Shown here piece by piece: positions 13,635-44,506 of a stretch of 44,506 bases of DNA (its first letter is position 1; each line of letters opens with the position of its first letter). The DNA is from an uncultured Gardnerella sp. GTDB lineage: Bacteria; Actinomycetota; Actinomycetes; Actinomycetales; Bifidobacteriaceae. Below the pieces are notes generated by a model. That model was not told the origin of the DNA. It worked only from the letters and a program-made list of their open reading frames with translations, and did no database searches. The stretch is from positions 1-44,506 of the forward strand of contig CAMXWX010000004.1 in NCBI GenBank assembly GCA_947252975.1. Reading direction: 5' to 3'. A program made the translations under genes and the position numbers.

Positions 13635-16600
13635 CTAGTCGCGATTAGCGTGCTTTGTGCGCATGCGACGAGTTGCAAACGCTCCGCCGATTGCAGCAAT
13701 CATAGTTGCCATCAATCCAGTAGTTGCAACGTTTGCACCAGTCGCAACGCCTGCATTTCCGCGAGAACGCATGCCCTTTATAACGCGGCTGCGAACAGCT
13801 GCACGCACTTTTGCTGCATTGGCTTGAGCATCCGCAAGCGCCTTACGTGCATCCGCAAGCTTAGCTGCCGCAGCGTCGACTTGCGCTTGCGTTGCGTGCG
13901 GATCTGCAGCAACACGCTTAGCTTGTGCCAAGGCTTCGTCTAGCGTAGCAGCAGCTTGCTTAACAGCAGCATCCGCTTGCTTTACTTCTGGAGCGTTTTC
14001 TACAGCGTTGTTTACAGCCTTGTTGTCAACACCTGCACTGGCTGCGCCCGCAGCGCCAGTGCCAGCAGCACCAGAGCCTGAGCCTGGAGTTACAGCACCC
14101 ATACCAGCGCCTTGCGCACCTGCACCTGGCGTGCTTGGATTTGCGCCAGCAGCACCAGAGCCTGGATTAGCGCCACCTGAATTTTCGGTTGTGTTAATCT
14201 GATTAATCAAATTCTGCTTATTAACGCCACCACTCGTGCTTGTGGAATCGCCAGAGCCAGAATCACTATCAGAACCTGTGCCAGAATCCGATTCCGAACC
14301 AGAGCCAGGATTTTCATCACCGCTTGGAGGAACTGGGACTGGAGCCTTGCCATCAAGAGCCTCTTCAGCTGCCTTAAGCTTTGCAAGAGCATCATCAACA
14401 AGCTTCTGCTTTTCAGCTTGAGTCTTAGTTGTTACATCTTCCTCGCCTTGAGCAGCCTTCTTCGTACCAGTTAGCTTATCGATAAGATCCTGAGCAGCTT
14501 GAAGAGCCTTATCAAACGCGGTCTTCTTTTCCGTAGTAGTAGCATACTTATACTTATCTAAGTCTCTAACGTTGCTATCCTTATTAATCTCATCTTGCAA
14601 AGGCTTGGTGTTAACACCGTCCAAAGCAAGGCGAGCCTTCACAAGCTTATCGAGTGCAGCGTCGATTTCTTTCTGTTCAGCGGCTTCTTTATCTGCAGTA
14701 GAAATATCAGCAGTCTTAGAACCATTCAAAACCGTTTGAGCCTCATTCAACGCTTTATCAAACTCATCTTTCTTAGCTTTAGAAGACGTGTTGTAAACAG
14801 AATCACCTGGGTTCGTCGTAGGATCGGTTTCGCTTGGCTTAAAGGTCTTATCGGTGTCAATCTCTTTACTAAGGGCATCGGTCTTTAGACCAGCGCTCTT
14901 GGCATCAGGATCAATAGCGCGCATTGCTTTAAGAAGATCGTCATACAAAGTATTGACTTCATCAGCACCCTTGGCATCGCCCTTATCAGATGTAGTTAGA
15001 GTTGTTGCATCAGTCAGATAGTCATCGAATGCTTTCTTCTTATTCTTATCATCGTCAGAATTAGTAAGCTTAGAATACTTGCCGTCTTTCTCATTCTTAA
15101 AGTCGTTGGCTTTCTTCTTCAACTCTTCAAGACGAGCCATAGCATTATCAGTGTTTGCAGCGTTAGCGAGCGCATCGTCGATGTCGTCAGAAGTTGTACC
15201 GTCATCATTGGTGTGATTACCAGCATCAGTACCATTGATGATTGCCTTGAAAGCATCCTTTTGAGCCTTGTTTAAATGCTTGAAGTCGTCAATTGCTTTA
15301 AGCGCATCCTCGATCTTCTTGGCCTTCAGCGCGCGATCAGCAATACCAGTTGGGTCGCCAAGCTTAGTGGCAGCATTGATGTCATCAATAGCCTTCTTCT
15401 TTTCGGATTCTGGAAGATTGCTATTGTTAATGCGCTTCTTCTGAGCTTCTTTTTCCTTAGTTAGAGCGTCAGCGTTGTCGTTTGTATTGCCAGACGTATC
15501 GCGCTGAGGCGTATTCTTCTTGATGTCTTCCTTAGCAGCATTAAGCGAAGTATCTACACCATTAACAGCTGTCATGATGTCGGAAGGCTTTGTTGCGTTG
15601 TTCACAGTAGTCTTAGCACCATCGATTGCTTTAGTTGCAGCTTCATACTTATCTTTAGCTGATTTCTTTTGATCTTCAGTCAAAGCATTGTATGCTGCAT
15701 CAAGATCTGCTTTTTTAGCATCAAGCTTCGCAATACCAGCATTCTTGGCGTTCTGCTCATTAATTGCGTTCTGGCGCTTGGCTGCTGCTACTGCGCTGTT
15801 GAGTTCATCAGCAGTGGCAGCAGGATTGGTTTTCTTTAGCAAGGTATCAATGTTAGTAAGAGCCTCATCCTTTTTGCTTGGATCTGCGCCAATGAGGTCC
15901 TTGAGAGCCTTGTCATCATCGCTGTTAGAATCGCCATGGCAAAGGAATGGAAGAGCACCCTTGGTAATGTCATTTTGCAATGCACCCTTAGCATCGTTAA
16001 TAGCCTTAGCCTTGTCAAGAATCTTCTTCACGGCATCAGGCGTTGTTGCGCCTTGTGGATCTGCTCCCGTACCATCACCGTTAATCTCTTTCTTGAGATT
16101 ATTCTTTTCATCTTTAGTCAGATTGCCAAGACCATCAATTGCATCAGAAGCCTTCTTCTTGTCTTCCTGTAGCTTTGTGTCTTCCTTATCCTTTTTATCC
16201 TTCTCGCGCTTCTCCTTTTCCTTCTTCTCCTTTTCTTCTTTCTCTTTATTCTTGATGTCGTCAGACTTTACATTATTCTTACCAGCCTGCTCGTTGGCTT
16301 CCTTAAGAATATTCTGGATTTTCTCTTTGGTATTGGTATCAGCCTGGTCAATCTTATCCTTGAACTGTTTCTTCTGCTCATCAGTAAGCTTAGGATTACG
16401 ATCGATAATCTTCTTCGCATCCTCCTTCATCTGCTTAAGGTCTTCAGCGGATGGAGTTGGGTTTTGTTCCTTAGGCTTAGGAGTAAACAAATTAGCTTTC
16501 TTAATACGAATCAGTTCTTCCGCATTAGTGCTGGTAGAGCCTGCTTTCCAGCCACGAACAACCAAATCTCCAGTCTTTGAATCAACAATTACACTTGTCA

Positions 16601-19533
16601 CACTACCTGTTTGCTTATCTCCAGTGTAAATATTCAAGCCGGATGTTCCACTTGCAACAGGAGTTAAGTTATATGTGTTCGCATTGTTGCCAGAAAGAAC
16701 AATAGTCTTATTGTTGTAGGCACCCTCAAGCTTAGACCAGTTTGTATTGTCAGTCGTCGTATAGTTCTTCTTCAAGAACTGTTCTACAACAATCTTCTTG
16801 TAATCATCATCAGTTAAATCACCCTCGTGATCCAACGTCAACTTCTCAAAGTTGTACTTATACTCAACTGGCTTTGGCTTCTGATAATCAGCAATCTTCT
16901 TGATAAGATCACGAAGAGCTTTCTCATCATTCATGCTATTAATTTTATCGTCAGTAGCTCCGAGAGTATTTATAGCATCTTCTGTTAACTCTCCAGCCTT
17001 CTTTCGCTGGTCACGAAGCTGCTTAGCAAGCTCTTTCAATTTTTCAACGGTGTTGTCCGTAGGAGTCTGCTGAGTACCCTTTTTAACATACAAATCTTTG
17101 GCTTGGATGGTAAACAGGCCCCTTTCCAAAGAAGAATTCCAATCGGCACCATTGTCAGCATCAGGATCCCAAGGGTGACCATGAACTGTAATAGCAAAAC
17201 CGTTAGTAGGATCTATACTAAATGAAGTCATCGGGCCATCATTAGGTGCTTTAGCACCATAGGCGCCCATATTCTTAGTACCAGCTTTTGGAACCCACTT
17301 CGTATTAACAGTAACACTGTCAGCGACAGTAGCCAGGTCATCATCAGATACGTTATTGTAATTGTCTTTCACAAACTGCTTTAATGCTTTAATAGCATCT
17401 TGAACAGTTGGCTTATCTCCATCAGTCTCAATTTTTCTAACGTTATATGTGAACGTATTCTTTGCTTGATCTGGGTCAGTATCAGTCTTACTCGTAGGAG
17501 TCTGCTGCGTAGGATTCTGGGTACCAGTTCCATTTACTTTCTTCTTATAGAAGATGCCGATTGGATAAACCTTATCCTCATATCCATCAGCCTTGAAAGT
17601 CACGGTACCATCCGCAATACTAATCGTTGCAGATGTTATAGCCACAGACTTATTAGGATCGCTTGCATCTTTTGCAGTGCGATTCTTTAACTGGCCTTGA
17701 AGTGATGTAATGATGTTTTGGTCCACAGTAGCATGCTTATCAAATGGATCAAATGTTACTTGGGTAGGATCATCAGGCAAATCAACCGTGAACATCTTCT
17801 TTTCTTCAGCAGGCTTTGGAGTTGGCGGCTTTGGAGTTGGATTTTCCTCAGCAGCCTTTTGCTTGAGGAATTGCCAAGAAGGAATCTCTGTTGTTGAACC
17901 GTCTGCCCAGGTAATGATGGCGTTCTTGAAGTCTTTATCAAAGCTTACAGGAGTTTGACCGTTTTTCTTAGCTGCAGTATAAACATCCAAGTCAGCGTTT
18001 GCTTTATCAAAAGCTTCGGTTACTTTCTTTTGTTCATCTGCATCTAATTTTGCAGGATCTGCAACCTCGATTGGAGCAGGTACCGCGTAAGGCGCCCAAT
18101 CGGCGATTTTTGGTCCCTGGAACACCAAATCTTCAGCAGGAATAGTAAGTTTTGAATCATCCTTGTATGTGACTTCTACAGAACCATCTTCTTTAACATT
18201 GAACTCGTACTGATGATTAGTTTGCTTCACATGATTCAAGAACTCGTTTGGATTTTCCTTACCATTGGCATTAATAATCGCTTGACGAATTTTAGTTTTT
18301 TCATCAGAAGTAAGATTCTTCAAATTCACTACAGGCGTGCGCTCAGGCATGACTGGCTTGTACTTATCTTTATCAGTCTCGTCTTTTGTTACAAGCAAGC
18401 TAGCTGGCATAGTGCGCTTAGTGTTGTCTTTAAATGTGATAGTTGCAGAGCCGTCCTGATTTACCACAACACCATTATCCGCAACTAATTCTTTAAAGTA
18501 CTTGGTCTTTTCGTTTGCTTTTTCAATTTTTTCTTTAATCGCCTTTTGCTCGATATCACTTAAATCGTTAGGCTTCTTAACCTTCGTAACCTCTGGATAC
18601 ACAAGCTTCAAATGGTCCGCAATCTTTGGCGTATTGTGCTTTTGGCCAACCGCATAATGCCAATTACCTGCAAAACGATATACGCCAGCAGCAAAACGAA
18701 GTGGATTCACATCACGCTTCTGCCAAGCATCATCCGTCATCTCGCCAACGTAAGTCATATCGTAGAATCGCTGCCCTGCAGACTCCCAGTCTACAAAAAT
18801 GCCTTGCAAGCCAGCGGTTTGATCTTTGTAATCACCCCACTGACCCTCAGTATTTCCAGCGTTATCGTAACTTCCGCCATTAAGACCAAGCAGCTGCTTC
18901 CACCCCTTACTTGCAAGCACATTTTGCTCATCAAAATAGAAGTTGGAGATGCTTTTCCACTGCTTTGGAGTAGGATATGTTTTCTTAGACGCAACGCCGT
19001 AGCCGTTTGTATCTGTAAACGTAAACTGCGATGAACCTGCTGGCACAAACGGCTGATTTCCGCGCATATTAGTCATTTTTTCAACGCGCGTATACGTAAT
19101 ATTTTGCACGTTCTGCAAGCCTTTTGGAACGCCATACCACCACATTGGGCGGAATCGCCAATCGTCGGCTGCGCCGCCTTCTTTATTGCAATTAGAAAGA
19201 TAATGAACGCGAACAAACTTTCCAAGCGGGTCTTTACCATCATCCTTGCCCGCCTGAGCATTCGCAAGAGTATCGTAATAATCCACCTCAATGTGGAAAC
19301 GAGCTTCTGTATAACTCGCGTCTGTTTTATAACCGTAATAAATGTTGTTGCCAGTGCCGTCTACATAACCATCAGCATAGGCAGGTGAGGAAACGAATAC
19401 CCCCCCCCCCAAGCACCATTGCGCCAGCTAGCATTGCAGCGCAAACACTCTTTGAAAGAACTGGCTGAGAATCAGCCCCAACACCAGAATAAACGCCAGA
19501 ATAGTGCTTAACTACACGAATCTTCTTAGACAT
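13635..19533 (-). CDS. Giant cell-surface protein with FIVAR/GA-like modules, phase-variable at a G tract (off frame as read)
   Basis: A likely adhesin. The start ATG 19533 follows GGAG by seven bases and encodes a signal peptide, but the G11 tract at 19400-19410 shifts the frame, and translation stops after 53 codons (TGA at 19374-19372). With ten Gs the signal peptide joins the long frame: 1965 residues with cleavage expected after SPAYA (residue 53). The long frame itself runs from a TTG at 19412. The mature protein has an N-terminal globular domain (to about 300) rich in aromatic residues, repeated modules with strands such as DGSATITFKDNT (300-580), lysine-rich helical GA-like modules (about 1000-1500), two FIVAR-like modules before a Ser/Asp/Gly linker, an Ala-rich helix, and a C-terminal anchor: VATTG (1935-1939), hydrophobic segment, RRMR tail. 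No canonical LPXTG. Family names are from motif recognition only. Confidence 0.85.
19400..19410 (-). repeat. Homopolymeric G11 tract in the signal-peptide coding region
   Basis: Eleven Cs on the plus strand (Gs in the gene). It falls right after codon 41 of the signal peptide. Lengths of 10 or 13 put the signal peptide in frame with the mature protein; 11 does not. Slipped-strand mispairing at such tracts is a known phase-variation mechanism. A sequencing miscount by one base would give the same picture. Confidence 0.9.
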
Positions 19534-19674
19534 ACTCTTACTCCATTATCTTACTCTTTGGATTAATGCGCCAACCCGACCGCAAAATCCACACAATTAT
19601 GCAAGGCATATTTTACTAATTGTTTTATACAATTTAAGATTAATTCGTATGATGAATTTTATGTGATTAACGCA

Positions 19675-19717
19675 CTTTGTACCAAATTCGACCTAAAACA
19701 CGTACAAAAAGCGGAAA
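19675..19717. repeat. GTAC-centred palindromic repeat, copy 2
   Basis: TTTGTAC (19676-19682) and GTACAAA (19702-19708) flank a loop with TTCGACCTAAAA, followed by AAGCGGAAAG. It lies between the FemAB gene's terminator and the promoter region of the surface-protein gene. The rest of the 300-bp gap (19534-19833) is AT-rich with no gene. Confidence 0.75.
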
Positions 19718-19730
19718 GACTCGTGGGAAA

Positions 19731-19770
19731 AACAAAAGCGACTAGCCACACAAAACATGCAACTAGTCGC
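19731..19770 (-). terminator. Terminator of the FemAB-type gene
   Basis: On the minus strand GCGACTAG (19770-19763) pairs with CTAGTCGC (19745-19738) and is followed by TTTTGTTTTT. It lies about 65 bp past the stop codon at 19834. Confidence 0.8.
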
Positions 19771-19833: not shown

Positions 19834-20928
19834 TTATTCCGCCTTAGAATCACCATCAGTCTTAGCAGCCTCACCTGCAGACGCAGCATCTGCCTTATCC
19901 GCATCACTCTTAGTTTCTGGCAAATCATCCCACCTGCCAACAAACTTCTTGTAGGCATCTTGGTCAATAACAACGTCTAACTCGCCAATCCAAGTAAACG
20001 GATCATTCGCTCTGCAAAAACCGTTCTTAAAGAAGTAAAGGCCTTCATCCATGCTAAGCGAATAAGTTCCGCCCATGTTGAACCACTTTAAGCCAAGCTC
20101 CTTAGTGCGCAAAATCAAATTCCAAATACACGTATAGCCTGGAGCAACCTTTCCATGCATGGTCTGCGTTGCGCCGTAAATGTACCACAAAGTGTCTTTG
20201 TACGGGAACGAAAGCATGCTTGCAACTGGCTCGCCCTCGTACTCGCAAGTGCAAATCTCAATCTGCGGGAATGCAGCAAGCAAGCGCTCAAAGTATTCAA
20301 ATGGCCTATATTTAATGCCATGCCTGTTTGCCATAATCTTTGTAAGCTCGTAGAAGGTTTGCAAGTCTTCTTCCGACCTACTCCAGCGAGTTACAACACC
20401 AGCCTTAATGCCAGCACGAATATGCCTTCTTGTAAGCGTGCTAAAACCAGCCATAAGCTCTTCTTCGGTTTTTCCCTCAACCTTAAGCATAATCTCGTGA
20501 AGCGGGTTGGAGTAAGACTTAGGGTGGAATCCCTGGCCTCTAAACGTGTAGCCAGCTGCCCTGTACTTTTCTATAAGATCCTCGTCGGTTTGAACGCAAG
20601 GGTCCATTCTAAGCAAAAATGCATTGTACTTTTCAAAAAGTGGCTTTGCTTCGTTGATTAGCTTTTTAGTGGTTTCAACGTCGTAAAAGTCGCAAACTGG
20701 GCCTCTAGGAGCGTAAAACAGCGTTTTATCGTCTACAGCCTTAATGCCAAGAATAGACACTGCAGCAGTAATCTTGCCGTTTTCTTCCAGATAAACGTAT
20801 TCGCTAGACCAGTTGTTTTTAACCTTTGCCCATGCCATGTCTTGCATTGCATTAGTGTACGGAGAATTTTTTACAAAGTCCTCGTATTCTTTAACTTTAG
20901 CAGAATCATTTTTATCTAGTATTGGCAT
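19834..20928 (-). CDS. FemAB-family peptidoglycan cross-bridge aminoacyltransferase
   Basis: Enzymes of this family add amino acids from aminoacyl-tRNA to the stem-peptide lysine or ornithine of lipid II, building the interpeptide bridge. I start at ATG 20928, five bases after AAAGGAG (364 residues); a GTG at 20934 would sit inside that ribosome site. Two GNAT-like lobes are suggested by FYAPRGPVCDFYD in the first half and YIYGATQTMHGKVAPGYTCIWN and FNMGGTYSL in the second half, all typical of FemX/FemA proteins. No membrane segment. The C-terminal 25 residues are an Asp/Ala/Lys-rich tail. It is upstream of the giant surface protein, whose sortase anchoring would use such a bridge, but a terminator lies between them. 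Confidence 0.9.
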   Translation of the reverse strand: MPILDKNDSAKVKEYEDFVKNSPYTNAMQDMAWAKVKNNWSSEYVYLEENGKITAAVSILGIKAVDDKTLFYAPRGPVCDFYDVETTKKLINEAKPLFEKYNAFLLRMDPCVQTDEDLIEKYRAAGYTFRGQGFHPKSYSNPLHEIMLKVEGKTEEELMAGFSTLTRRHIRAGIKAGVVTRWSRSEEDLQTFYELTKIMANRHGIKYRPFEYFERLLAAFPQIEICTCEYEGEPVASMLSFPYKDTLWYIYGATQTMHGKVAPGYTCIWNLILRTKELGLKWFNMGGTYSLSMDEGLYFFKNGFCRANDPFTWIGELDVVIDQDAYKKFVGRWDDLPETKSDADKADAASAGEAAKTDGDSKAE

Positions 20929-21061
20929 TTGCACTCCTTTTTTAGCTCAATACACGATTTTAGCGCGACTACCGTTTAAGATATTTGCTTTAGCGTTTTA
21001 CAAGGCGATTTAGGCGTTTTACACGATTTATACGACTTGCGAGTAGAAGCTTTGCGACTAG

Positions 21062-44378: not shown

Positions 44379-44453
44379 ATGGGTATGCGTGGACGTAAGC
44401 GCAAGGCTCGCCGCAAAAAGGCAGCAAATCACGGCAAAAGGCCAAATGCTTAA
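44379..44453 (+). CDS. 50S ribosomal protein bL37 (24 residues)
   Basis: A microgene too short for standard ORF lists. The product begins MGMRGRKRKARRKK and ends NHGKRPNA; the basic body and the NHGKRPNA end match bL37, a small actinobacterial large-subunit protein seen in mycobacterial ribosome structures. ATG 44379 follows TTAGGAG by six bases, a strong ribosome site. The last codons and the stop lie within the first unit of a 13-bp tandem repeat, but the stop TAA is inside that unit, so copy changes should not alter the protein. Confidence 0.88.
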   Translation: MGMRGRKRKARRKKAANHGKRPNA

Positions 44454-44506
44454 TGCAAATGCTTAATGCAAATGCTTAATGCAAATGCTTAATGCAAATG
44501 CTTAAT
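44444..44506. repeat. 13-bp tandem repeat at the end of the bL37 gene
   Basis: Perfect units of AAATGCTTAATGC at 44444, 44457, 44470 and 44483, and an 11-base partial unit from 44496 to the window edge. The true copy number is unknown because the window ends inside the array. Confidence 0.95.

What the first reader, a model, noticed from the sequence alone, without database searches (positions are those of the whole stretch)
19369..19533. G11 tract inside the signal peptide would switch a 1965-residue surface protein on and off
The ATG at 19533 has a good ribosome site and encodes a normal signal peptide, but the eleven-G run after codon 41 throws it out of frame and it stops at codon 54. Removing one G (or adding two) joins it exactly to the 5.8-kb frame, with an AYA cleavage site where expected. 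A mutation-prone tract placed between export signal and adhesin is the classic layout of phase variation; here the off state abolishes export of the entire protein.
Basis: partly seen in the sequence, partly recalled or inferred. Interest (0 to 1): 0.82.

Follow-up and report, generated by a model that had tools for sequence, protein, structure and literature searches.

The report
Poly-G switch in Gardnerella surface protein
A run of eleven Gs inside the export signal of a giant surface protein of a vaginal Gardnerella bacterium very probably turns the protein on and off by changing length; tract-length change at this kind of gene was already shown by others in 2024.

Summary
The G11 tract is real (19400-19410, minus strand) and is the only G/C run of 8 or more in the window. 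It lies in the signal peptide of a GA-module/Rib-domain surface protein. The frame from ATG 19533 stops at codon 54, while the 1925-codon frame behind the tract is open, so this copy is in an off state.

Phase variation is well supported. Of 120 listed homologues, 39 are in the signal-peptide frame, 55 and 24 in the other two, and 2 cannot be assigned. In 13 of 17 groups with 600 identical residues behind the tract the frame differs, and frame is scattered over the tree like shuffled labels. One natural protein in the signal-peptide frame differs from the window by 1 of 1920 residues. The downstream frame is under purifying selection.

It is already known in substance. Garcia et al. 2024 (PMC11287997) found two tract lengths among sibling colonies at a Gardnerella GA-module gene. 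One of their primers matches this window exactly, and the pair brackets the tract of the gene's closest held homologue. New here are the signal-peptide position, frame census, tree and selection tests. Expression was not tested.

The parts
19372..19533 (-). 5' end of the gene: ATG, N-region and start of the signal peptide; in this copy the frame leaves the gene after the tract and stops at codon 54
19400..19410 (-). G11 homopolymer tract, coding for glycines in the hydrophobic part of the signal peptide in natural open alleles
   Evidence: natural open alleles
13635..19412 (-). long open frame of the surface protein: 3 atypical Rib stretches, 3 GA-module stretches, 3 MiiA-motif stretches, C-terminal hydrophobic segment and basic tail with VATTG before it
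19545..19685 (-). two promoter-like hexamer pairs upstream of the ATG (9 of 12 consensus positions; consensus match only)
19738..19770 (-). terminator-like hairpin behind the upstream FemAB-family gene; suggests that the surface-protein gene is transcribed separately
19834..20934 (-). upstream neighbour, FemAB-family protein (not part of the switch)
19207..19226 (+). exact match to one of the two PCR primers that Garcia et al. 2024 used to sequence the variable tract of a GA-module gene
   Evidence: PMC11287997 section 39 read

Best explanation
This is a translational phase-variation switch (contingency locus). Slipped-strand mispairing during replication changes the number of Gs. Because the tract lies inside the signal-peptide codons, a one-base change moves the ribosome into another frame: in one frame the whole ~1965-residue surface protein is made with its export signal, in the two others only a short peptide is made from this start. 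The window is a closed allele. Shown here: tract, frames, natural open and closed alleles, frame scatter, purifying selection. Shown in print for the G. vaginalis counterpart: tract-length change between sibling colonies. Inferred: slippage as the cause, loss of surface display, and a benefit through adhesion or immune escape.
For: The tract is far above chance and stands behind the same Met-Val-Leu in all 10 readable places, with lengths 8-11. Of 14 places examined, 3 are open, 7 closed, 3 have N at the tract (G015, G023, G045) and 1 has no tract (L005). Of the 120 listed homologues (966 found), 39 are in the signal-peptide frame, 55 start at a TTG at the tract, 24 come from the third frame and 2 are not assignable: P0029, a partial record, and P0080, with a changed leader (one search had put these two in the second and third frame). 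P0002, in the signal-peptide frame, differs from the window by 1 of 1920 residues. 13 of 17 groups with 600 identical residues hold more than one frame, 11 of 17 both signal-peptide and other frames. Label changes on the tree: 44 observed against 45.7 +/- 2.7 shuffled (61 of 200 as low); on/off 29 against 28.3 +/- 2.4 (136 of 200 as low) (with all 121 rows, gave the same picture). dN/dS over 736-773 codons behind the tract is 0.19-0.41 in all 36 pairs of 9 genomes. Garcia et al. 2024: 9 of 10 colonies of one strain and 7 of 9 of another had 9 bases, the rest 10.
Against: No reads, RNA or protein data from the window's strain were at hand, and its assembly is not held. Homopolymer lengths in assemblies can be miscounted, and the census rests on assembled sequences. 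Entries outside the signal-peptide frame are gene-caller predictions. Only the best 120 of 966 hits were classified. The homologue in G109 has an additional in-frame stop. The published colony data concern the G. vaginalis counterpart; G109's copy is 87% identical over 460 residues, and no FemAB or DEAD-helicase neighbour was found in the 12 kb around it. The second published primer has no site in the window within 3 mismatches.
Confidence: 0.92

Rival explanations
1. Sequencing or assembly miscount: the tract in this strain has another length and the gene is constant.
For: Homopolymers are error-prone, and Garcia et al. say so too. 3 of 14 places examined have N at the tract (G015, G023, G045).
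Against: Sanger-sequenced sibling colonies differ in length at the G. vaginalis counterpart; all three frames are common among 120 listed homologues. A miscount in this one assembly remains possible but would not remove the switch.
Confidence: 0.1
2. Pseudogene: the gene was inactivated by the frameshift and is decaying.
For: The window copy is closed, 7 of 10 readable places are closed, and G109 has a further stop.
Against: 8 of 9 downstream frames are uninterrupted for 1884-2123 codons; dN/dS 0.19-0.41; a nearly identical natural protein is in the signal-peptide frame.
Confidence: 0.03
3. Slippage by RNA polymerase or ribosome at the G run makes some full-length protein in every cell, so tract length tunes the amount rather than switching it.
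For: Long G runs can be slippery (general knowledge; not tested here).
Against: The published differences between sibling colonies are at the DNA level, which a slippage-only model does not need. No direct test was run.
Confidence: 0.1
4. Internal start: closed alleles still make the mature part from a start behind the tract, without a signal peptide.
For: Gene callers annotate such forms (55 and 24 of 120).
Against: Of 15 in-frame start codons listed from the tract to codon 271, one (GTG at 19109) met my loose ribosome-site pattern; such a form would lack the export signal.
Confidence: 0.05

Closest known systems
GA-module protein gene GAVG_0299 of Gardnerella vaginalis 14018, tract sequenced by Garcia et al. 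2024 (PMC11287997)
   Same: GA-module protein gene with a 9-10 base homopolymer tract. One primer matches the window exactly, and the pair brackets the tract of the closest held homologue in G109 with a 545-bp product against 546 bp stated.
   Different: Other species: the window's conserved genes are nearest to G001, G. piotii. The window lacks the second primer site. The paper's text has no 'signal peptide' and no 'in-frame' or 'spacer'; in sections 11, 12 and 39 it does not assign frames for this tract.
Poly-G translational phase variation in Neisseria (HmbR/HpuAB; start of the abstract of PMC3786947 seen in a listing)
   Same: Homopolymeric G in the open reading frame; switching of a surface protein.
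   Different: Here an actinobacterium, with the tract inside the signal-peptide codons of a Rib/GA repeat protein.
Large GA-module extracellular protein of G. vaginalis (Yeoman et al. 2010, PMC2928729, passages seen; author name recalled)
   Same: Very large predicted extracellular protein with GA modules, listed among virulence-related genes.
   Different: The words 'phase vari', 'frameshift' and 'homopolymer' do not occur in that text; identity with this gene was not tested.

Membership tests
Homopolymer-driven translational phase-variable gene | Long homopolymer (8 or more) in the 5' coding part, beyond chance | tested here: met
Homopolymer-driven translational phase-variable gene | Natural alleles occur in open and closed frames through tract length | tested here: met
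   3 open and 7 closed of 10 readable places; 39, 55 and 24 of 120 by frame, 2 unassigned
Homopolymer-driven translational phase-variable gene | State changes faster than lineages diverge | tested here: met
   13 of 17 identical-sequence groups mixed; frame scatter like shuffled labels. Caveat: assembled homopolymers
Homopolymer-driven translational phase-variable gene | Coding frame behind the tract kept by selection | tested here: met
   dN/dS 0.19-0.41 in 36 pairs; 1 of 9 frames has an extra stop, G109
Homopolymer-driven translational phase-variable gene | Tract length varies within a clone | not testable with these tools
   Shown in print for the G. vaginalis counterpart (PMC11287997 section 11); no reads for this strain
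Homopolymer-driven translational phase-variable gene | Protein expression follows tract length | not testable with these tools
   No expression data
GA-module / atypical Rib surface protein | Domains above curated cut-offs | tested here: met
   aRib 115.3 bits vs 27, GA 48.2 vs 24; MiiA motif 88.3 vs 24
Sortase-anchored (LPXTG) wall protein | LPXTG-type motif, hydrophobic stretch, basic tail | tested here: inconclusive
   Hydrophobic stretch and basic tail present, but the motif position reads VATTG; 116 of 120 listed homologues read VATAG, 2 VATTG, 2 VATGA; more distant relatives have LSKTG or LSATG, the outgroup LPKTA

The most novel reading that the evidence does not exclude
Gardnerella genomes may run a two-tier surface phasome. 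A few large exported proteins are gated by G/C tracts inside or just behind the signal peptide (translation on/off), and others by G tracts that sit between -35-like and -10-like hexamers (a recurring TTGA-N9-12-Gn-TAT module, graded transcription). Surface make-up would then vary combinatorially within one clone. The word 'spacer' does not occur in Garcia et al. 2024 and 'promoter' occurs once, in its reference list; a search for Gardnerella + homopolymer + promoter + spacer listed one paper, on soil methylotrophs by its title.
Probability: 0.5. Interest if true: 0.5.

Novelty: already known. Interest (0 to 1): 0.33.

Why it matters
It would explain why one clone of Gardnerella can hold cells with and without a very large host-facing protein, which matters for biofilm, adhesion and antigen studies. 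It also matters for annotation: 81 of the 120 listed database homologues begin without the signal peptide, 79 of them in another frame and 2 not assignable. Garcia et al. report a GA-module protein 24-fold higher in small-colony variants of ATCC 14018 and one 7-fold higher in those of strain 2492; tract state is a testable cause, though the passages seen do not say that it is the same gene.

Tried and rejected
Pseudogene decay was considered and rejected. A chance run of G was rejected. Alternative starts were scanned and found weak. A search of solved structures gave two weak matches, 6efb (E 1.7e-4) and 9q5e (E 0.001), not pursued. [quoted passage not shown] Papers holding homopolymeric tract, signal peptide, phase variation, adhesin and frameshift: 9 listed, none naming Gardnerella in its title.

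Corrections to my own work: my note says 12 of 20 G001 tracts lie upstream of exported proteins; recounted it is 8 of 20 on the same strand. The same note and one search give 56 and 25 for the second and third frame; one search gives 55 and 24, with 2 unassigned. In one search the last loop crashed after the pairwise table and one block table had been printed. Rows not scored for state: L039 and L042 (N gap at the tract; the script also picked a wrong start) and L002/L041 (N where leader and tract should be). One of the three open alleles, L078, was read only to the end of the fetched piece (1005 codons; open frame 1944). The second copy in G076 (C3) lies near a contig end, so its downstream frame was not judged.

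Full report
What is there. On the minus strand an ATG at 19533, with GGAG seven bases before it, begins a basic N-region and a hydrophobic stretch. Codon 41 is followed by eleven Gs at 19400-19410, after which this frame stops at codon 54. It is the only run of 8 or more G/C in the 44.5-kb window; the 8-G word occurs 4 times against 0.07 expected. The frame behind it is open from 19412 to 13635. It encodes three atypical Rib stretches, three GA-module stretches and three MiiA-motif stretches, then a hydrophobic segment and basic tail. Upstream lies a FemAB-family gene followed by a terminator-like hairpin.

Where it comes from. The window's own assembly is not held. Two conserved genes place it nearest to G001, whose contig length equals that of Gardnerella piotii UGent 18.01 in L003: 96% for the FtsH-like gene and 98% for the GAPDH gene, with G015 next (95% and 96%). 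The FemAB and DEAD-helicase neighbours are 99% and 95-96% identical as proteins in G. piotii. The first 460 residues behind the tract are closer to G109 (87%) than to G001 (79%), which suggests recombination at this gene.

Tract and state in relatives. 10 of 112 genomes searched in the genus-level group hold a match to the N-terminal part. Of 14 distinct places examined, the window included, 10 have a readable tract of 8-11 Gs, 3 have N at the tract (G015, G023, G045), and 1 (L005, a record titled Coriobacteriales bacterium DNF00809) has no tract and one frame of 1784 codons. Of the 10, 3 are in the signal-peptide frame and 7, the window among them, are not. The window and G001 share the 60 bases before and the 40 after the tract and differ in its length. 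The first copy in 1500E and the C3 copy in G076 have the same leader residues and the same printed 12 bases before and 30 after, and also differ in length (compared by eye).

Frame census. A search with residues 1-460 gave 966 proteins, of which the best 120, all at 84% identity or more, are listed. By N-terminus 39 are in the signal-peptide frame, 55 begin at a TTG at the tract, 24 come from the third frame and 2 cannot be assigned. P0002, in the signal-peptide frame, differs from the window's downstream frame by 1 of 1920 residues. Of 17 groups of rows identical over 600 residues behind the tract, 13 contain more than one frame and 11 contain both signal-peptide and other frames. On a FastTree tree, with 119 labelled rows, the three-state label changes at least 44 times, against 45.7 +/- 2.7 for shuffled labels (61 of 200 as low); on/off 29 against 28.3 +/- 2.4 (136 of 200 as low). 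The first version with 121 rows gave 44 against 46.9 +/- 2.8 and 29 against 28.9 +/- 2.2. State carries no detectable memory of ancestry. Caveat: assembly errors in homopolymers would look alike; the published Sanger data argue that not all of it is error.

Selection. dN/dS over 736-773 codons behind the tract is 0.19-0.41 in all 36 pairs among 9 genomes. 8 of 9 frames run 1884-2123 codons without a stop; G109 has an in-frame TAG after 784 codons. This looks like a maintained gene, not a decaying one.

What is already known. Garcia et al. 2024 (PMC11287997; abstract, sections 11, 12 and 39 and passages seen) report a median of 20 long G/C tracts in 91 Gardnerella genomes, and Rib, GA-module and other surface-protein motifs as common among the hypothetical proteins near tracts. 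They Sanger-sequenced one GA-module gene, GAVG_0299: 9 of 10 colonies of strain 14018 and 7 of 9 of AKK101 had 9 bases, the rest 10. One primer matches the window at 19207-19226 exactly. The other is repeated in some genomes (18 hits in G109) and has no site in the window within 3 mismatches. In G109 the two fall at 1305629-1305648 and 1306154-1306173, a 545-bp product around the tract of this gene's closest held homologue, against 546 bp stated. I therefore file the finding as already known.

Mechanism. Shown: tract, frames, natural alleles, scatter, selection. In print: length change between sibling colonies. Inferred: slipped-strand mispairing as cause, loss of export in closed alleles, benefit through adhesion or immune escape. 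The outgroup without tract (L005) suggests that the tract was gained in Gardnerella, on one outgroup only.

Wider context. G001 has 20 distinct G9+ tracts. Five lie in the first 170 bases of an ATG frame, most with a signal-peptide-like start by eye, all five closed in that assembly; behind each is an open frame of 498 codons or more, 4 of 5 running off the fetched piece. Eight lie 92-300 bases before an exported-looking protein on the same strand (by eye). A pattern for a G tract between TTGA and TAT gave 56 matches (54 distinct places) in 12 of 12 Gardnerella-cluster genomes, against 1 match of the reversed control. That points to a second, promoter-spacer type of switch; the genes behind these sites were looked at in G001 only.

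Noticed in passing
12 Gardnerella-cluster genomes (G001, G010, G015, G023, G032, G045, G047, G076, G109-G112): Recurring module TTGA-N9-12-G8+-N0-6-TAT, often beginning TTGACTTTT: 56 matches (54 places) against 1 reversed-control match. In G001 several lie upstream of exported-looking proteins. Looks like promoter-spacer phase variation.
   Followed up: partly
L101 (G109:C1:1298500-1310500): The homologue in G109 carries an in-frame TAG after 784 codons behind the tract, with a further 1147-codon open frame behind it.
   Followed up: partly
window 13635-13740 and L101-L108: Two kinds of C-terminus in one gene family: VATxG-type tail in the window, G001, G109 and G015; LSKTG/LSATG-type in G110, G032, G111, G076 and G047. 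Suggests swapped ends and an unusual wall-sorting motif.
   Followed up: partly
G001 C2 (L029, L032, L110, L112, L102): Five genes of one genome have a G9+ or C9+ tract near the start codon, and all five are closed in that assembly.
   Followed up: partly
window 13635-19412 against its flanks: The N-terminal part of the surface protein is closer to G109 (87%) than to G. piotii (79%), while flanking proteins are 95-100% identical to G. piotii: recombination at the locus is likely.
   Followed up: no
G109 and G010 genomes: The published primer that is absent from the window is repeated in these genomes: 18 hits in G109 and 14 in G010 at up to 1 mismatch.
   Followed up: no
window 44443-44506: Perfect 13-base tandem repeat, 4.9 copies, running to the window end.
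   Followed up: no
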